DNA from: Planctomycetota bacterium
GTDB lineage: Bacteria > Planctomycetota > MHYJ01 > JACQXL01
Assembly: GCA_016208805.1 (NCBI GenBank)
Contig: JACQXL010000097.1
Span: forward strand, 2,780-35,167
DNA length: 32,388 nt
Direction of reading: 5' to 3'
Each line of letters starts with the position of its first letter. The first letter of the stretch is position 1. The notes below the pieces were generated by a model. It did not search any database and was not told the origin of the DNA. It saw nothing but the letters and a program-made list of their open reading frames with translations. Both the position numbers and the translations under genes were made by a program. Positions 14,808-28,971 of this stretch are shown piece after piece.

Positions 14808-14860
14808 ATTGTTATTATTACTGAACTCTTGCCCTTACAGGATAAACGAAATGGGAAATA

Positions 14861-15037
14861 AACCACCCAAAAAGTGTCATTCTGAGCCCGTAGGGCGAAG
14901 AATCTCGTCCCAAACCCGCATAAAACGGAGATTCTTCACGGAGTTTACCCTGAGCGTAAGTAGATTCTTCGCTTCGCTCATAATGACAGTAAGCGAAGGG
15001 TTCAGAATGACAAAAGGGGCATTTCGCAAGAGTTCAG
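14861..15037 (+). repeat. Dispersed repeat, copy 1 (inverted relative to 23258-23400)
   Basis: The outer parts AACCACCCAAAAAGTGTCAT, then GTAGGGCGAAGAATCTCGTC, and the distal CAAAAGGGGCATTTCGCAAG are shared with the reverse complement of 23258-23400, with almost no differences. The central part (about 14940-15000) is a different palindrome-rich insert in each copy. There is no coding capacity beyond the spurious ORF 14809-15060. It occupies the first third of the 860-nt gap between the isomerase and the HTH gene. Confidence 0.85.
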
Positions 15038-15086: not shown

Positions 15087-15416
15087 CTTTTACCGGTGCG
15101 GGAACCATCCTGAGCCGTTGGGGGAATTACGCCGAGCCGTTGCGGGTACTACCCTGAACCGTTCCCGGACAGCCCCTGAGCCGTTCCCGGATAGCCCCTG
15201 AACCGTTGCCGGGTTATCTCGGAGCCGTTGCCGGATAACCCCTGAGCCGTTGCGGGATATTACCGCAACCATTGCTGGGGTATCCCTGAGCCGTTGGTAG
15301 ATAGCCCCGTAACCGTTGACAGGATACCCCTGAGCCGTTCAGCCCTACAGCCGCAACGGTGGACGGATAACTCCTGAACCGTTCCCGGAACTACCCCCGA
15401 CGGCTCACGGAACTAT
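15087..15416 (+). repeat. Tandem array 1: 15 units of exactly 22 bp
   Basis: Units start every 22 nt from 15087 (15109, 15131, 15153 and so on to 15395). The approximate consensus is CCTGAGCCGTTGCCGGATAG plus CC. The core GA(G/A)CCGTT is kept while individual units differ at many positions, yet no unit has gained or lost a base. Neighbouring units tend to alternate GAGCC and GAACC. There are no spacers, so it is not a CRISPR. It lies upstream of the HTH gene at 15668. Confidence 0.9.
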
Positions 15417-15667: not shown

Positions 15668-16126
15668 ATGGGTAGACGAGCGGCGCTTTTTATCCGGTTG
15701 ACCACCCAGCAGTCGGTTGAGTTAGAGGTCTTTATGCGCGAGATGGCGCGTCGGGGAAATCGCCGCGCCCGCCTCAGGGGCAATGCCATATTCTTATCTT
15801 TTCAATACGGCTGGACCGCCCAAAAGATTGCCGGCCACCTGAACTGCTCAACGCCGTCCGTGGTAAGTTGGCTAAAGCATTATCAGGAAAAAGGCATTGC
15901 CGGCCTATACGACATCCCGACACCAGCGCGGCGGCTGACGCCTTTTCAGGTTGAACAGATTACCGGGGCGATGTATGATATCACCCAGGCCAAATCCAAA
16001 CGACGTTACCGCAAACGACTGAGTTACCGCGAGACCGCCAGATTAGTCAAGGAAAAATACGGCATAAATATCTCGTACGAACGCGTCCGCCAGATTGTCC
16101 GGCAAAATCTTCTGGGTGCAAGATAA
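15668..16126 (+). CDS. Stand-alone IS630-type helix-turn-helix protein, HTH gene 1
   Basis: This 152-residue basic protein has two helix-turn-helix segments. The first, at about 32-80 (GNAIFLSFQYGWTAQKIAGH then SVVSWLKHYQEKGIAGLYD), matches the homeodomain-like HTH_29/HTH_23 domain. The second, at about 95-148 (SYRETARLVKEKYGINISYE), matches the HTH_33 winged helix. This pair forms the DNA-binding half of IS630/Tc1-type transposases. The protein stops where the DDE catalytic domain would begin, and no DDE remnant follows: the convergent aminotransferase ends 6 nt downstream. The homologue at 18010-18492 ends at the same point, which argues against random decay. The upstream 22-bp array and leader are the likely binding region. 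Function as a regulator or structural DNA-binding protein is inferred. Confidence 0.82.
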   Translation: MGRRAALFIRLTTQQSVELEVFMREMARRGNRRARLRGNAIFLSFQYGWTAQKIAGHLNCSTPSVVSWLKHYQEKGIAGLYDIPTPARRLTPFQVEQITGAMYDITQAKSKRRYRKRLSYRETARLVKEKYGINISYERVRQIVRQNLLGAR

Positions 16127-17451: not shown

Positions 17452-17759
17452 CCTCCATTGTCGCTATAGGTGGTATCCCTTGTGGCAATAGGAGGTGTCC
17501 CTTGTGGCAATAGGGGGTGTCCCTTGTGGCAATAGGGGGTATCCCGTGTGGCAATAGAAGGTATCCCTTGTGGCAATAGGAGGTATCCCTTGTGGCAATA
17601 GGGGGTGTCCCGTGTGGCAATAGGGGGTATCCTTTGTGGCAATAGGGGGTACCTCTTGTGGCTATAGATGGTATCCCTTGTGGCAATAAGGGGTATCCCT
17701 TGTGGCAATAGGGGGTGTCCCTTGTGGCAATAGGGGGTATCCCGTGTGGCAATAGGAGG
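17452..17759 (+). repeat. Tandem array 2: 14 units of exactly 22 bp
   Basis: Unit starts fall every 22 nt from 17452 (17474, 17496, 17518 and so on to 17738), with a partial unit at 17760. The consensus is T(A/G)TCCCTTGTGGCAATAGGG plus GG. Units are much better conserved than in array 1. Because 22 is not a multiple of three and the unit lacks stops on the minus strand, long false ORFs (17405-17842 and 17409-17708) appear. The array lies upstream of HTH gene 2 at a distance close to that of array 1 from HTH gene 1. Confidence 0.93.
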
Positions 17760-18009
17760 TATCCCGCTACCATACTCCTACCCCTCCTATACCCTACCCC
17801 CCCACTCCTTTTTATCCTTAAAATCGGTTCAAAACAGCCCAAATAGGGCAGATGTATGCTATAACAACTGATTTGGCAATAGGTTATTAAGAGTGCCAGA
17901 CGAATTTTATTTGCAGGGATTTAGCCGTATTTTCTTGACTTTTAGGGCTTAATATGAAAAAATGGTTTGCGTCGTAAGGTAAATCTCATCTTTCAGAAGG
18001 GTGTTTTTG
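17760..18009 (+). promoter_or_regulatory. Leader of HTH gene 2: C-rich tract and conserved CTTGACTTTT element
   Basis: A pyrimidine-rich tract (CTCCTACCCCTCCTATACCC, about 17771-17810) is the strand-swapped counterpart of the G-rich tract before HTH gene 1. TTAAAATCGGTTC, then GAATTTTATTTGCAGGGATT, then CTTGACTTTTAGGG (from 17934) match the leader of HTH gene 1 in order. TAATAT lies too close (9 nt) to TTGACT for a standard promoter. AGAAGGG ends 8 nt before the ATG at 18010 and fixes the start. Confidence 0.6.
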
Positions 18010-18492
18010 ATGTCCAGAAGGCATATCTTTATAAAACTAAACGAGTCAGAGTTAAAAGAACTCCAGGAGTTTGCCTCTGAGATGGCCCGCGAAAAGAAGT
18101 TAAATACCAGGCGGAGAGCCAACGCCTTGGCGTGGTCATTCCAGCAGGGTTGGTCGGTTCAACAGATTGCCCGGGATTTAAACCGCACCCCACGCACCAT
18201 CTATAACTGGTTCAAACGGTATAAACAAAAAGGTATTGCCGGATTATATGATAAGCCCAGACCTGCTAAACTCACCAACGTACAAATCATAGAGATGATG
18301 CGGACGAACCACTGGATATATACGGATGACAAGACCTATCAGATGAGATGGAGTTTTCAGAAGATGGCTAAATGGGTGAAAGAGAAATGGGGTATTGAAC
18401 TTTCCGCCGAGCGCATCAGACAGATTATCCGCCGGAAGAATGACGCCCCGTTCTTTTATTTAGAAATAATCAATAACCCGAACCCGCCTTAG
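18010..18492 (+). CDS. Stand-alone IS630-type helix-turn-helix protein, HTH gene 2
   Basis: This 160-residue protein is homologous along its length to the product of 15668-16126. The shared core includes GWSVQQIARDLNRTPRTIYN versus the GWTAQKIAGHL region, the phrase KGIAGLYD in both, and the C-terminal winged helix (KWVKEKWGIELSAERIRQII). The DDE domain of IS630 transposases is absent, as in the paralogue. The track start is a GTG at 18001. I prefer ATG 18010 because AGAAGGG is correctly spaced and MSRRH aligns with the paralogue's MGRRA. The last residues run into a proline-rich tail. A 22-bp tandem array of a different sequence lies upstream, which suggests that each protein has its own cognate array. 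That pairing is inference. Confidence 0.82.
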   Translation: MSRRHIFIKLNESELKELQEFASEMAREKKLNTRRRANALAWSFQQGWSVQQIARDLNRTPRTIYNWFKRYKQKGIAGLYDKPRPAKLTNVQIIEMMRTNHWIYTDDKTYQMRWSFQKMAKWVKEKWGIELSAERIRQIIRRKNDAPFFYLEIINNPNPP

Positions 18493-23141: not shown

Positions 23142-23257
23142 AATAATTCCTCCCTTTACACTCCCTCATATTAATTATAGTTACGAGTTACGCACTCCCT
23201 GTCATTCCTGCGTAAGCAGGAATCCATCCCGACACTTCGTGTCGGGGTTCGTAATTG

Positions 23258-23400
23258 CTGAACTCTTGCGAAATGCCCCTTTTGTCATTCTGAACGAAGT
23301 CCGCCATAGGCGGACGGAGTGAAGAATCTCCGTTTTATGCGGATTTGGGACGAGATTCTTCGCCCTACGGGCTCAGAATGACACTTTTTGGGTGGTTTTA
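23258..23400 (-). repeat. Dispersed repeat, copy 2 (inverted relative to 14861-15037)
   Basis: The reverse complement begins AACCACCCAAAAAGTGTCAT and ends CGCAAGAGTTCAG, exactly as copy 1 does. Its centre holds GTCCGCCTATGGCGGAC instead of the longer palindrome set in copy 1. Upstream (about 23200-23250) are two further hairpins, ATTCCTGCGTAAGCAGGAAT and TCCCGACACTTCGTGTCGGG. Together these repeats fill most of the 288-nt gap between the FN3 gene start and the caspase gene end. Confidence 0.85.
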
Positions 23401-23429: not shown

Positions 23430-26381
23430 TTATTTGGTCAGGTAAATCTCGTTCGGTGTTTTAATCTTGATGACCGGTGTCTGTTCTTTCTCCATTTCGG
23501 CCGCCTTTTCGGGCACTCTTTTCTCTATATATTTGGCGATTTCTGATGCGCTGACCTTACCGTTCAAATCTGTATCGGCCTGTCCCTGGAGTCCATCAAG
23601 AAGGAAGGTAGTAAACAGGTCGTATTGCGATTCCGGGATTTCCACGACCGGCTGGCCTTTGGCGGATGCCAGAATGACCACACTCCCGTCATCCAGCCCT
23701 TCTTCAAGCCCTGCCGTCATTTCGTCTTTCAATTCCGTCAATTCGGCTGAGTGGCAACAGTCAACCATAAATACTTTATATTTAGAATTAATCCGTTTCC
23801 AGAGCACCCGGAAATCCTGGCATCCGATGGCCGTGCCGGGCAAATTATCCTTGGCTGTATCATACGGGATTAGATAGTAAGCGGTCTTCCCTGTAGGGGT
23901 CTCCGCTGATTTGTCCTGCTCTTCGCCAGACACACCCACATCGCAGTGGCCGGCATAATAACAGATAACAATATCGTGTTCCTTGGCCTTCTCGGCCAGT
24001 TGGTTGACGGCATCTTCTACGCGTTTGCCGGTTGCATCTTTGCCCAACAGCAGAGTAACATTCTCCGGCCTGGCCGGCGTATCCGGGTTACCCGTATAGA
24101 ATTTATAAATCCCCTCTGCATCGGCCTCGGCCCGGGTTAATTCTTTGATATTGATATCCTGGTATTTGCCGATGCCGATTATCAGGACATAAACCTCCTG
24201 TTTTAATCTGGTGACGATTAGCGCCCTGGTCGCCACCAGCCCTTCGTTATCCGTGGCGCTGATTTTTATCTCGTTGTCGCCTGTCTCAAGTGAAATCAGG
24301 CAGGAAAACCTGGCCGCGCCCGTCCGGGCGGTCATTTTAACCTCTATCGGTTTATTGTTAACCAGCACCTGAATATCCTTTATTTCGCCGTCATCCGCGA
24401 CCAGTCCGCTCAGGGTAATCATTTCTTCAGTAGTTTGTTCCATCGTGGTCGTCGGCTGGAGGATGGCGATATCAGGCGGTGCCTTGTGGAAAATCTTTAG
24501 AGTTGATGCGGTTGCAGACGTGCCGGCGGATGATACATCATCCTTCACTGCCGTTGTCTCAATCCAGCCGGATTCATCTTCGGAAATCTTAACTTTATAC
24601 CAAGCACCCTGCCCGACTGCGCCGTTCAGGCGGGCCGCCTGACCGACGGCCTTCAATACTGCGCCTTCCGGTGATTGCGCCAGGGTGGGCATATCGTTTC
24701 CGCACCCGGTCTTGATTGTCGCAGTTTGTCCGGTGATAACAATATCCTTGGACGCCGCGGTTACCTGAAAGTCGGCGCTTGAGTCTATCGGCCATTTTTC
24801 CTGCCAGCCCAGTTTTGCCTTGCCTGCACCGTCTGTTATATTAACGGATAGCTCTAATTCCTGGATTAAAGCATCATCTTTAACCTTGATGGTAAATCTG
24901 GCCGGTTTGGTTGAATCCGGCGCAATATCGCCTACCTCAACCGATTTGCCTGCCTGTGCCCCGTACGGGGCAGACAGGGTCTGCAATTCTATCCCGGCCG
25001 ATGGGTTAACTGAAGTCGTTATTGAGACTTTAGATGCATCTTCATTACCGATGTTCTTTACCGTTACCAGTAAATCAACCGTCTCGCCCTTCTGGATACG
25101 GCCATCGCCGTTACCGGCAGATTTGTCCCGCATAAGTACGGGACTGTCTGCGGACTTGCCTGTGCCGTCGTCAATCATCTGGCAAGAATAGGCAAAGGCC
25201 GGGCCGCCGGTTCCTTTCATCCATAATCGTGCCTCTACGGTGTCGGGTGGATTGTTGTTAAGTTCATCAAAGCCGATAGTTATCGGTATTAACCGGTTAA
25301 GACTGGTTCTGGAAATCGCAAATGATTCCTGGAAGGCGGTCTCTTCGCCGCTCTTGAGTTTCCCGATAAGCACGCGTCTGTTAAATGTCGGTTCATCGCT
25401 TTTGATATTGGCCATCAACCGATAACAATCGCCTTTGCCCCACTTGTTGGAGATGCTCAGTTTCAGTATGGCCGGTTTGTCTTCCTCAGAAGCCCTGCCC
25501 GCCCCGACGGCCGTCGGGACGTAGGCGGGGCCGCTAATCTCCGCCCGGGCCTGCGGGTAGGGCATCAGCCGCGAGATGCCCTTTGACCAATCAACCTTGC
25601 CGTGGGTGATTAAGGCAATGGTTTCTTCCAGGGTCCATTGCGTGGTATACTTTTCGCCGGTGGTTAATTTTATATCCAGGGCAACATTATCGGGGAATTT
25701 CTCCAATCCCAGAATATTACGCGATAGCGCCGCATCTACAGGGATAACACCTTCGGCCTTATCGTTGGTGGCGTCCGGCATCACGGATTTTGGGTCGTCA
25801 TTGACGGTGACGGTAAAGTTGGTTTTACCGACCTTGGGTTCCTGCGGGATTTTGTCCTCCCATATTCCGGCCGGCCGCTCGCCGATAATGGTTTGCGGTT
25901 GGGTAACTGTTCCGGTCACGCCGGCCGCTCCGCCGCCCATCATCAGCGTGAACCCCAGCAGCCGTCCCTGGAGTTTTTTATCGCTCACGGAGGCATATTC
26001 GGTCTCGCCATAGGCGGCGGGGTCCGGCGCCGGGTTGCTCAGGAAATACAGAAGCCCGATGGCGCCGGTTATCCAGCCGCTGTTAGCCAGTGGTTTATAA
26101 CTCTTCACCTGCGAAGTCTTTTCCAGTTTCTCGTATTCACGGATAATATAGGTTATGTTGGGGTCGCGGACCTTAAATTTCAACTGGGGCGTTTCCGGCG
26201 TGGGCTTGAGAGTCGTCTCAATGACAAATGGCTTCTTATCAGACGGCTTCATCGTCCATTGACGGACAAATCCGCCTTTGGTGTAGTCATTCAGCCCCTG
26301 GGGCGGCGAGACGCACGAGGCCAGGCATAACACCGATAAAATCAGGGTCAGCCCTATTGCGGTGGTTCTGGTTCCCATCAT
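23430..26381 (-). CDS. Caspase-family (C14) lipoprotein with SH3-like and Ig-like domains
   Basis: The signal ends in a lipobox LASC with C23, so the protein should be lipid-anchored. Middle regions include a CARDB-like beta domain (LLVTVKNIGNEDASKVSITT), an SH3b-like stretch (about 570-630, with GAWYKVKISEDESGWIE) and an Ig-like domain (MITLSGLVADDGEIKDIQV). The C-terminal caspase/metacaspase fold starts at YVLIIGIGKYQD. The catalytic dyad is H812 in YYAGHCD and probably C876 in VDCCHS. DTDLNGKVSASE near the end resembles a calcium-binding loop. Family members cleave after Arg/Lys or Asp; target unknown. Two in-frame palindromes (24957-24972 and 25498-25530) add PYGAQ-type and PTAVGAG-type inserts. 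The gene follows the TPR gene across the 21-bp array, suggesting co-expression. Confidence 0.9.
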   Translation of the reverse strand: MMGTRTTAIGLTLILSVLCLASCVSPPQGLNDYTKGGFVRQWTMKPSDKKPFVIETTLKPTPETPQLKFKVRDPNITYIIREYEKLEKTSQVKSYKPLANSGWITGAIGLLYFLSNPAPDPAAYGETEYASVSDKKLQGRLLGFTLMMGGGAAGVTGTVTQPQTIIGERPAGIWEDKIPQEPKVGKTNFTVTVNDDPKSVMPDATNDKAEGVIPVDAALSRNILGLEKFPDNVALDIKLTTGEKYTTQWTLEETIALITHGKVDWSKGISRLMPYPQARAEISGPAYVPTAVGAGRASEEDKPAILKLSISNKWGKGDCYRLMANIKSDEPTFNRRVLIGKLKSGEETAFQESFAISRTSLNRLIPITIGFDELNNNPPDTVEARLWMKGTGGPAFAYSCQMIDDGTGKSADSPVLMRDKSAGNGDGRIQKGETVDLLVTVKNIGNEDASKVSITTSVNPSAGIELQTLSAPYGAQAGKSVEVGDIAPDSTKPARFTIKVKDDALIQELELSVNITDGAGKAKLGWQEKWPIDSSADFQVTAASKDIVITGQTATIKTGCGNDMPTLAQSPEGAVLKAVGQAARLNGAVGQGAWYKVKISEDESGWIETTAVKDDVSSAGTSATASTLKIFHKAPPDIAILQPTTTMEQTTEEMITLSGLVADDGEIKDIQVLVNNKPIEVKMTARTGAARFSCLISLETGDNEIKISATDNEGLVATRALIVTRLKQEVYVLIIGIGKYQDINIKELTRAEADAEGIYKFYTGNPDTPARPENVTLLLGKDATGKRVEDAVNQLAEKAKEHDIVICYYAGHCDVGVSGEEQDKSAETPTGKTAYYLIPYDTAKDNLPGTAIGCQDFRVLWKRINSKYKVFMVDCCHSAELTELKDEMTAGLEEGLDDGSVVILASAKGQPVVEIPESQYDLFTTFLLDGLQGQADTDLNGKVSASEIAKYIEKRVPEKAAEMEKEQTPVIKIKTPNEIYLTK
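24957..24972. repeat. In-frame palindrome in the caspase gene (CARDB-like region)
   Basis: TGCCCCGTACGGGGCA is a perfect 16-bp palindrome, with further partial pairing of the flanking CTGT and CAGACAG. It codes for the PYGAQAG segment between LSA and KSVEVGD. Confidence 0.7.
25498..25530. repeat. In-frame nested palindrome in the caspase gene
   Basis: CCCCGACGGCCGTCGGG lies within outer arms GCCCGCC and GGCGGGGC. It codes for PAYVPTAVGAG near the middle of the N-terminal half. Confidence 0.7.
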
Positions 26382-26415
26382 AATATCATCTCATTCCGCC
26401 TCGGTGGGATAACTT

Positions 26416-26625
26416 GTGTACGCTCGTCCATAACCCGTGGTCTCAAGACCATAACTCGTGGTCTCAAGACCATAACTCGTGGTCTCAAGACCATAACTCG
26501 TGGTCTCAAGACCATAATCCGTGGTCTCAAGACCACAACCCGTGGTATCAAGACCGTAACCCGTAGTCGCAAGACCATAACCCGTAGTCTCAAGACCAGA
26601 ACTCGTGGGCAAGTCCCTATATCAT
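26416..26625 (-). repeat. Tandem array 3: 21-bp units between the TPR and caspase genes
   Basis: Eight clear units start every 21 nt from 26437 (26458, 26479 and so on to 26584), with degenerate units at both ends. The unit is GTGGTCTCAAGACCATAACT plus C and contains the inverted repeat GGTCT/AGACC. As 21 bp is seven codons, the minus strand reads as a heptapeptide repeat (GLETTSY) in one frame and MVLRPRV in another. The ORF at 26391-26612 fits exactly between the TPR stop and the caspase start, but it has only a TTG start. I annotate the DNA repeat and leave coding open. Confidence 0.9.
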
Positions 26626-28934
26626 TTAATCCGCGCCTTCCATTCCTGGACCAATTCCGCCATCATCTGGTCGTCCGGCGCCAACTTAAGACACATCTCG
26701 CCGTCGGACACGGCGGCCTGGTAATCGCCCTTTTTCTTATAGGCGATGCCGCGGTTGTAGTATAAACGTCCGTCTTTCGGATTTAATTTAACGGCCTCGT
26801 TGAAATCGGCAATGGCATCATCCAACTTATTGGCGGACTGCAAATAAATATTACCCCGGCTGAAATATGCCTCAACCATCTTCGGGTTAATTTTGATTGC
26901 CTCGGTGTAATCGGCCAGGGCCGGTTCCAGGGCGAACTGGTCGTAATATATGTCGCCCCGGCTCAAATATGCCCTGCTATTCTGGGCATCAAGATTGATG
27001 GCTTCGGTGTAATCGGCGATGGCTTTATCGGGTTTGCCGGTTTCCTTATAAAGCATACCGCGGTTAAAATAGCCGTCAGCCAGTTTGGGGTTCAGTTTGA
27101 GCGCCTCGCTGTAATCCGCAATGGCGCGTTCCGGGTCGCCTTTATCTTTATAGGCCAGCCCGCGGGCATTATAGTAGGCCCCGCCCCGATGGGCATCGGG
27201 GGGGGTTAACCTGATGGCCTCGCCGTAATCCGCAATGGCCCAGCCGTAATCCTTTTTGGTGTGGTAAGTCAGCCCCCGGTTATAATAAGTTTCCGCATCC
27301 TGCGGGTTCAGCCGGATGGCCTCGTGATAGTCCCTGAGCGCCTGCTCCAGATCGCCCTTGTAATAATATATCTTGCCGCGGTTGGAATATACACCGTAAT
27401 GTTTGGGATTAAGTTTAAGCGCCTCGGTAAAGTCAGCCAGCGCTGAGTCCAAATCATTCCTGTCGCCATAAGCCCGGCCCCGGGCGTTATACGTATCGGC
27501 TATGCCCTCAAGCCGCGGGGCAAGCCGGATGGCCTCGGAATAATCCGCAATGGCCTTATCCACATCCTTCTGGGCATAATAGACCAGCCCCCGCGAGCCG
27601 TAGGCCGTCGCATCCTTGGGGTTTAACCGAATGGCCTCGTTGAAGTCTCGCAGCGCCTTATCAAAATCTTCTTTCTTGTAGTATGTAATGCCGCGGTTGG
27701 TATAGGCCTCGCTGAATTCAGGGTTCAACCGGAGCGCTTCGGTGTAATCCTCTATGGCCCGTTTCAGGTCGCCTTTGTTGTAATTGACAATCCCGCGGGC
27801 ATTATAGGGCTCGGCCAGTTTGGGATTCAGTTTGATGGCCTCGGAAAAATCTGCCAGTGCGCGCTCCAAATCGCCTTTTTTATGGTAGGCCAGCCCGCGG
27901 GCCGTGTAGGCCAGTTCCCGACACTTCGTGTCGGGATTCAAGTTAAGCGCCCGGCTAAAATCGGTAATGGCCTTGTCAAAATCGTTCTTCCCGGAATATG
28001 CAATGCCGCGGTTGCGGTATGCCTCGGTGAACGCCGGGTTCAACTTGAGCACCTCGGAATAATCCGCAATGGCCTGCTCAAGTTCGCCCCGGGCCGCATA
28101 AAGCATTGCCCGGTTATTGTATGCCTCCAGATATTTAGGATTAAGTTTGACGGCCTCGGTGTAATCCGGGAGCGCCTTGTCAACCGCGCCCTTTTTGTCG
28201 TAAGCCAGCCCGCGTTTATAGTAGGCCCGGGTGAGTTTATCTTTGCTTAACGACGGGATGGCCGCAGTATATGACTCTATCGCCTTATCCCAGTCACCTT
28301 TCTTGCTGTGCGCATCGCCGGTGTTGAACAATACATCCGCCTCGGACAGCGAACTGGACTTGATTACTTTCGGTTTGGGCCGCCACTTGGGGATTTTACC
28401 GCCTGATTTCTCCAGCAACAACTTGGCCTCTTTGTTAGCCGAATCCACATCCAGAATATAGCCGACTACATAACAGGCAAACTTGGGGTATTTCTTGCGG
28501 GCGCAGTCATTGGCCAGTGCCATCAAATCTGTAACGTGCTTGCCCTTTATCTTGGCCAGTTGCTTGGTATTAAGGTCCACCCGTTCCAGGGCCCGGCCGA
28601 CCTGTGTAAGCATCTCCTTTTCATCATTGGATAGTTTCAACCGCTTGCGCAGGATGGCCTGACAGCGCCGGTAGTAAATGACGGCCTGGTCGTTATCCTT
28701 TAACTTTTCCCAACACTCGCCTAACTTGAACAAGACATCGGCAAAATCCGGATAATAAGTTAGCGCCTTCTTAAACTTCTCAACCGCCTCCTGATAATTA
28801 TTCTGCTTGAGTTGTTTCAGCCCGCTCTGGTAATAAACGTCTGCTAATTCCCGGTCTTCAACGGCTCCCGAAAGCATTCGGGACTGGCTCGTTAATAACA
28901 GCAGAATTGCGACCAATAGAATCTTATTACCCAT
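26622..28934 (-). CDS. Exported TPR-repeat protein
   Basis: The product is almost entirely 34-residue tetratricopeptide repeats, about 18, of the type EAIRLNPKDATAYGSRGLVY. Near the start is a signal peptide, GNKILLVAILLLLTSQSRML. The track starts at a TTG (28958); I place the start at ATG 28934, which removes eight residues and puts the hydrophobic core in the normal position, with GGGAG upstream. TPR arrays bind partner proteins; no catalytic domain is present. The gene precedes the caspase lipoprotein on the same strand with only array 3 between, so it may scaffold the protease or its substrate in the envelope. Three in-frame palindromes (27184-27201, 27916-27936, 28866-28883) lengthen single repeats or the leader region. 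Confidence 0.9.
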   Translation of the reverse strand: MGNKILLVAILLLLTSQSRMLSGAVEDRELADVYYQSGLKQLKQNNYQEAVEKFKKALTYYPDFADVLFKLGECWEKLKDNDQAVIYYRRCQAILRKRLKLSNDEKEMLTQVGRALERVDLNTKQLAKIKGKHVTDLMALANDCARKKYPKFACYVVGYILDVDSANKEAKLLLEKSGGKIPKWRPKPKVIKSSSLSEADVLFNTGDAHSKKGDWDKAIESYTAAIPSLSKDKLTRAYYKRGLAYDKKGAVDKALPDYTEAVKLNPKYLEAYNNRAMLYAARGELEQAIADYSEVLKLNPAFTEAYRNRGIAYSGKNDFDKAITDFSRALNLNPDTKCRELAYTARGLAYHKKGDLERALADFSEAIKLNPKLAEPYNARGIVNYNKGDLKRAIEDYTEALRLNPEFSEAYTNRGITYYKKEDFDKALRDFNEAIRLNPKDATAYGSRGLVYYAQKDVDKAIADYSEAIRLAPRLEGIADTYNARGRAYGDRNDLDSALADFTEALKLNPKHYGVYSNRGKIYYYKGDLEQALRDYHEAIRLNPQDAETYYNRGLTYHTKKDYGWAIADYGEAIRLTPPDAHRGGAYYNARGLAYKDKGDPERAIADYSEALKLNPKLADGYFNRGMLYKETGKPDKAIADYTEAINLDAQNSRAYLSRGDIYYDQFALEPALADYTEAIKINPKMVEAYFSRGNIYLQSANKLDDAIADFNEAVKLNPKDGRLYYNRGIAYKKKGDYQAAVSDGEMCLKLAPDDQMMAELVQEWKARIK
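27184..27201. repeat. In-frame palindrome in the TPR gene
   Basis: CCCCGATG and CATCGGGG flank two bases. One TPR reads AIRLTPPDAHRGGAYYNARG, about four residues longer than its sister repeats at this loop, which marks the insertion. Confidence 0.75.
27916..27936. repeat. In-frame palindrome in the TPR gene, same type as 17411-17433
   Basis: TCCCGACAC and GTGTCGGGA flank TTC. It produces NPDTKCRELAYTARG, about three residues longer than other repeats in the array. The same hairpin is intergenic at 17411 and 23227. Confidence 0.75.
28866..28883. repeat. In-frame palindrome next to the TPR protein signal peptide
   Basis: TCCCGAA and TTCGGGA flank AGCA. It codes for SRMLSGA directly after the hydrophobic core of the signal peptide, the likely cleavage region. 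Confidence 0.65.
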
Positions 28935-28971
28935 TGTAACCGCCACTCCCTTAACCAATCAGTTGTGAATA

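What the first reader, a model, noticed from the sequence alone, without database searches (positions are those of the whole stretch)
26391..26625. 21-bp array fills exactly the gap between TPR and caspase genes and could encode a heptapeptide-repeat peptide
The minus-strand frame 26612-26391 reads GLETTSY repeats and fits between the TPR stop and the caspase start with about 9 nt on each side, like an operon gene. Each unit also holds a GGTCT/AGACC hairpin. It could be a small repetitive protein, an RNA spacer with serial hairpins controlling the downstream caspase, or a plain minisatellite. The only start is TTG with a poor ribosome-binding site.
Basis: partly seen in the sequence, partly recalled or inferred. 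Interest (0 to 1): 0.5.

Follow-up and report, generated by a model that had tools for sequence, protein, structure and literature searches.

The report
Palindromic DNA array before caspase gene
The repeat between the two genes is most likely not a small protein gene but one of a lineage-specific class of 21-base palindromic DNA arrays that sit just in front of certain genes; what the arrays do is not yet known.

Summary
The array is real: 26428-26608, 21 bp x 8.6 copies, no indels. The minus-strand GLETTSY frame is open with 9 nt on each side. Coding is unlikely. Substitutions between units are as often synonymous as chance predicts. Four of six frames through the unit are open. Related arrays in two sister genera keep the dyad but change the peptide, and in one genus that frame is antisense to its neighbours.
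The array belongs to a larger set. In the sampled parts of this genome and two order relatives, 75 of 88 tandem arrays have a unit of 21 or 22 bp (or a multiple), with many unrelated sequences. The 21-bp arrays carry a dyad in the unit; the 22-bp arrays do not.
The 21-bp arrays lie directly upstream of the start codon of an unnamed protein family ("X") in 6 of 6 testable cases. X occurs in all three array-bearing genomes and in neither order relative whose sample lacked them. The window array has the same layout in front of the caspase gene.
Dyad mismatches show no strand bias (G.U 18, A.C 16), so a DNA-level element fits at least as well as an RNA hairpin. Function is inferred, not shown.

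The parts
26428..26608 (.). 21-bp tandem array, 8.6 copies; minus-strand unit GGTCTTGAGACC+ACGRGTTAT with dyad GGTCT/AGACC
26402..26427 (.). decayed edge unit(s) of the array (GGACGAGCGTACACAAGTTAT and non-repeat tail)
26391..26612 (-). open frame reading GLETT(S/G)Y heptads; judged non-coding
26622..28958 (-). TPR-repeat protein with N-terminal signal-like segment, upstream neighbour on the same strand; stop lies 13 bp from the array
23430..26381 (-). caspase-domain (Peptidase_C14) protein with lipoprotein-type N terminus; start codon 47 bp from the array

Best explanation
The feature is a non-coding array of 21-bp palindromic units, a member of a lineage-specific class of 21-bp dyad arrays placed in the leader of a downstream gene, here the caspase gene. 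SHOWN: the array, the dyad, dyad conservation with changed stem letters in two sister genera, the class-wide dyad enrichment, the position just upstream of start codons, and the close link of the class to protein family X. INFERRED: the dyad acts at the level of double-stranded DNA, as a row of protein-binding sites spaced two helical turns apart (all on one face of the helix) that modulates expression of the gene behind it. Unit number would then change by slippage. The caspase gene would have acquired such a leader array although it is not itself an X gene.
For: Period strictness: 19 of 23, 38 of 45 and 18 of 20 arrays in samples of the own genome, G002 and G005 have a 21/22-bp base unit. 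Samples of G004, G006, G013, G015 and G045 have none, and G055 has two, one inside a large ORF and one near a stretch end (samples 28-100 kb). Dyad: 21-bp arrays outside clear genes, 9 of 19 with p<0.05, combined p 2e-7; 22-bp arrays 0 of 42, p 0.92. Same unit with different stems in three genera: GGT/ACC, AAT/ATT, GCC/GGC; 90% of stem cells paired against 71.5% shuffled, 26 cells with double changes against 10.8, next-best slid register 57%. Position: upstream of X in L025, L051, L052, L069, L107 and L162, 38 to about 175 bp from the start codon, usually with a Shine-Dalgarno between. X occurs in G000, G002, G005 and G007 only among 59 near genomes. G.U and A.C mismatches are equal on the sense strand (18 against 16), as expected for a DNA dyad, not an RNA stem.
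Against: The window array is upstream of a caspase gene, not X. Array L151 of the same subfamily lies between convergent genes and so leads no gene; L064, L065 and L072 likewise. No binding protein is identified. Dyads can arise without selection, through hairpin-mediated slippage or quasi-palindrome correction. The link to X rests on six loci, and caspase homologues in G002 and G008 have no array upstream.
Confidence: 0.4

Rival explanations
1. Neutral or selfish minisatellite: 21-bp units expand by slippage, and the dyad is a by-product because self-complementary units slip and self-correct more easily. It is tolerated in gaps between genes and has no function.
For: Arrays are enriched in convergent gaps (15 of 42 array regions against 38 of 286 gaps) and avoid divergent, promoter-bearing gaps. 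Unit sequences differ at nearly every locus. Some 21-bp arrays lead no gene.
Against: Does not predict 6 of 6 X genes having an array just upstream (chance about 5e-13), co-occurrence of X and arrays, or dyads only in the 21-bp and not the 22-bp class.
Confidence: 0.33
2. RNA leader with serial hairpins: transcribed with the TPR-caspase message, the array folds into one long or many short hairpins and controls translation or decay of the caspase part.
For: Sense strand folds at -100.1 kcal/mol, z -5.9; sister array L151 z -12. Arrays lie before Shine-Dalgarno sites.
Against: The antisense strand folds as strongly relative to shuffles (z -7.3), and so does the unrelated 22-bp array (z -9.0), so folding energy does not discriminate. 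No G.U excess over A.C on the sense strand. G005 array L052 only z -1.7. No Rfam match.
Confidence: 0.2
3. A small gene encoding a heptapeptide-repeat protein (GLETT(S/G)Y)n in an operon with TPR and caspase.
For: Open frame of 73 codons that fits the gap with 9 nt each side; period is a multiple of three without indels; best codon score of the six frames (0.10 per codon).
Against: Synonymous fraction equals the neutral expectation in all arrays. Codon score is at the 1st percentile of genes. The homologous frame is antisense to neighbours in G005. Stem codons change together (GGT/ACC to AAT/ATT to GCC/GGC), keeping complementarity and not residues. TTG start without usable ribosome-binding site; no Pfam hit.
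Confidence: 0.05
4. REP/BIME-type palindromes spread by a Y1 (RAYT) transposase.
For: Short palindromes between genes; Y1 transposase genes exist in the genome.
Against: Y1 genes occur equally in relatives whose samples have no arrays (G004, G006). No constant tag next to the palindrome across arrays, and a strict tandem period.
Confidence: 0.02

Closest known systems
Bacterial minisatellites / VNTR loci
   Same: Head-to-tail units of about 20 bp in a gap between genes.
   Different: Unit length fixed at 21 or 22 bp over many unrelated sequences in three genera; 21-bp units are dyads and precede one gene family.
REP / BIME / REPIN palindromes
   Same: Short intergenic palindromes.
   Different: Strict tandem period, locus-specific sequence, no constant tag, no link to Y1 transposase numbers.
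Operator or iteron arrays (protein-binding direct repeats about two helical turns apart)
   Same: Repeats of about two turns, dyad unit, upstream of a gene; proposed mode of action.
   Different: No binding protein known here; unit sequence differs at each locus; many loci per genome.
CRISPR arrays
   Same: Repeats with dyad.
   Different: No spacers; units are contiguous.

Membership tests
Small protein gene (heptapeptide repeat) | Purifying selection on the encoded residues | tested here: not met
   Synonymous fraction 2/7, 2/6, 3/12 against expected 0.26-0.31
Small protein gene (heptapeptide repeat) | Conserved orientation and context of the frame | tested here: not met
   Sense to neighbours in the window, antisense in G005, convergent gap in G002
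Small protein gene (heptapeptide repeat) | Translation | not testable with these tools
   Needs ribosome profiling or proteomics
Minisatellite / VNTR | Head-to-tail copies | tested here: met
Minisatellite / VNTR | Copy number varies between strains | not testable with these tools
   No second strain held; paralogous arrays L043 and L052 in G005 differ in unit number (about 9 and 15)
21-bp dyad leader arrays (this study) | Unit dyad above column-permuted control | tested here: met
   stem 0.91 against 0.70, p 0.025
21-bp dyad leader arrays (this study) | Array just upstream of a codirectional start codon | tested here: met
   47 bp before the caspase ATG
21-bp dyad leader arrays (this study) | Downstream gene is family X | tested here: not met
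   Downstream gene is Peptidase_C14
CRISPR | Unique spacers between repeats | tested here: not met
   Contiguous units
REP/REPIN | Association with a Y1 transposase | tested here: inconclusive
   Y1 genes present with and without arrays
Intrinsic terminator | GC stem followed by T run | tested here: not met
   None of the hits lies in the array
Known structured RNA | Rfam gathering score | tested here: not met
   No match in the window

The most novel reading that the evidence does not exclude
Each copy of an unnamed protein family (X), and a few other genes such as this caspase, carries its own locus-specific array of 21-bp DNA dyads in its leader. The unit length is set by a protein or enzyme footprint of two helical turns rather than by shared sequence, making a previously undescribed gene-plus-array module; orphan HTH proteins with 22-bp arrays would be a parallel module.
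Probability: 0.3. Interest if true: 0.75.

Novelty: new variant of a known kind. Interest (0 to 1): 0.52.

Why it matters
Tandem repeats usually take any unit length. Three related genomes in which nearly all arrays have units of exactly 21 or 22 bp, with two classes that differ in symmetry and in the genes they accompany, point to a mechanism that counts helical turns. If the arrays regulate the genes behind them, this caspase gene and about 8 to 10 X genes per genome would share a mode of control that can be tested with a reporter.

Tried and rejected
Peptide gene: rejected on substitution pattern, orientation and stem covariation. Rfam families: none. Terminator or sigma-70 promoter in the array: none. 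Y1/RAYT origin: not supported. Naming the organism through a scan with the caspase protein found nothing; the pattern scans of genome contigs and viral contigs gave one unrelated 21-bp array (L088) and one chance match in a tail-protein gene (L089). Family X in phages, plasmids, viral contigs, PDB, PHROGs, Pfam and NCBIfam: no match. Literature searches for 21/22-bp bacterial arrays found no description; the library is partial. TPR-caspase adjacency could not be followed through the TPR protein because TPR hits are everywhere.

Full report
OBSERVATION. The array is present as described: 26428-26608, period 21, 8.6 copies, no indels. The minus-strand frame 26612-26391 reads GLETT(S/G)Y heptads, with 9 nt to the TPR stop and 9 nt to the caspase start. 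The neighbours are a 778-residue TPR protein and a 983-residue caspase-domain protein with a lipoprotein-type N terminus.

NOT A GENE. Four of the six frames through the unit are open, so openness carries little weight. Across the window array and the sister arrays found later, changes between units in the GLETTSY frame are synonymous in 2/7, 2/6 and 3/12 cases, against 0.26-0.31 expected with no selection. The codon score of the frame is at the first percentile of genes in this genome, though it is the best of the six frames. The start is TTG without a usable ribosome-binding site.

A SISTER-ARRAY FAMILY WITH CHANGING STEMS. A pattern that fixes the non-stem letters and leaves the stem letters free matched only three of 392 genomes of the phylum: this one, G002 (same family, another genus) and G005 (same order), with zero control matches. 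In the window-minus orientation the units are GGT CTTGAG ACC, AAT CTTGAG ATT and GCC CTTGAG GGC, each followed by ACGRGTTAT or a close variant. The stem letters differ but stay complementary. 90% of stem cells are paired (71.5% after shuffling), 26 cells have double changes (10.8 after shuffling), and sliding the partner by one column drops pairing to 57% or less. Identical rows were counted once, but units within an array are related, so these shuffles are not independent probabilities. The homologous peptides would be GLETTSY, NLEITSY and ALEGTSS. In G005 that frame is antisense to both neighbours.

THE GENOME-WIDE SET. Of tandem arrays of at least 55 bp in samples of the own genome (329 kb), G002 (642 kb) and G005 (382 kb), 19/23, 38/45 and 18/20 have a base unit of 21 or 22 bp. 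Smaller samples of five other relatives had none, and G055 had two with multiples of 21 bp, one inside a large ORF and one near the end of a fetched stretch. An independent autocorrelation scan over periods 10-60 shows excess only at 21, 22, 42 and 44, apart from single regions at 14, 24, 27 and 54, once the constant background (taken to come from masked N runs) is set aside. Unit sequences differ between nearly all loci.

TWO CLASSES. On actual units, with the same column permutation applied to all units as control, 21-bp arrays outside clear genes show a 5-bp dyad above control in 9 of 19 cases (combined p 2e-7). 22-bp arrays show it in 0 of 42 (combined p 0.92). Some of the 19 share a locus or are paralogous, so the combined value overstates independence. 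Taken together the arrays are over-represented in convergent gaps.

LINK TO A GENE FAMILY. Genes just downstream of several 21-bp arrays turned out to be one unnamed family, X, about 190-235 residues, without Pfam, NCBIfam, PHROG or PDB match. Of seven members in the samples, six have upstream sequence held, and all six have a 21-bp array directly upstream: L025, L051, L052, L069, L107 and L162, whose array was missed by the TRF settings and was read by eye, with some units of 20 bp. The distances from array to start codon are 38 to 85 bp, and about 175 bp for L107. The family was first noticed because its genes follow arrays, so the four seed loci are not an unbiased draw; L107 and L162 came from the profile search and are the independent confirmations. 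X occurs in G000 (8), G002 (9), G005 (10) and G007 (7) and in no other of 59 near relatives, including G004 and G006, whose samples lack arrays. A phylum-wide draw finds seven further scattered genomes with weaker X matches; their arrays could not be looked at. Several X genes of the own genome begin within 25-250 bp of a contig end, as expected if assemblies break in upstream arrays.

THE WINDOW ARRAY. It has the layout of the X arrays: 13 bp after the upstream stop, 47 bp before a start codon, same strand throughout. Its sister subfamily in G005 (L052) precedes an X gene; another copy (L043) precedes or overlaps the start of a PD40 beta-propeller gene. But its own downstream gene is a caspase, and L151, the G002 sister, leads no gene. 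So it is a member of the array class and not of an X module.

DNA OR RNA. The sense strand folds well (z -5.9), but so do the antisense strand (z -7.3) and the dyad-poor 22-bp array (z -9.0), so folding energy does not discriminate. Over sense-oriented arrays, G.U mismatches (18) and A.C mismatches (16) are equal; an RNA stem should favour G.U. This leans towards a DNA-level dyad, weakly.

MECHANISM. Best supported: a row of dyad DNA sites two helical turns apart in a gene leader, bound by an unidentified protein and modulating the gene behind it. The binding, the protein and the effect are inferred. A neutral minisatellite whose dyads come from slippage and quasi-palindrome correction (general knowledge) is nearly as likely for this single locus; the X link argues against it for the class.

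LIMITS. Gene calls are my own ORF scoring. No second strain was available, so copy-number variation was not tested.

Noticed in passing
window 15092-15396 with 15668-16126 (+), and 17454-17765 with 18001-18492 (+): Both 22-bp arrays of the window lie upstream of small stand-alone HTH_23/HTH_32 proteins resembling an IS630-type DNA-binding domain without the DDE part. In the samples of the three array genomes 5 of 7 such genes or fragments are within 350 bp of a 22-bp array (binomial p about 2e-6).
   Followed up: partly
L025:14780-15487, L051:496-1056, L052:4602-5294, L069:~903-1577, L107:~258-910, L162:12604-13254: Unnamed paralogous protein family X with motif (L)GITVxDxxPTP, 7-10 copies in each of four genomes of the order, patchy elsewhere in the phylum.
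   Followed up: partly
window 14860-15035 and 23230-23400: Two inverted copies of an interspersed element (GTCATTCTGAGCCCGTAGGGCGAAGAATCTCGTCCCAAA...), seen by eye.
   Followed up: no
L151:1217-1451 and 1621-1819; L072:12503-13275; L081:12192-13294: In G002, 22-bp and 21-bp arrays occur side by side in the same gap, with runs of different unit sequence next to each other.
   Followed up: no
L043, L052, L051 (G005): Genes upstream of three 21-bp arrays share a C-terminal domain ending YLEFENAT(C/A)IGVP, a repeated surface-protein-like module.
   Followed up: no
window 23430-26381, residues 255-725: The caspase protein's middle part matches TIGR03900 (MXAN_5808 family serine peptidase) at E 2e-51, below that model's cut-off.
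   Followed up: no
L088:2516-2749: An unrelated 21-bp array (TGACTATGCAGGTTCTGGTAT) 164 bp upstream of a 312-residue ORF in a bin of another organism.
   Followed up: no
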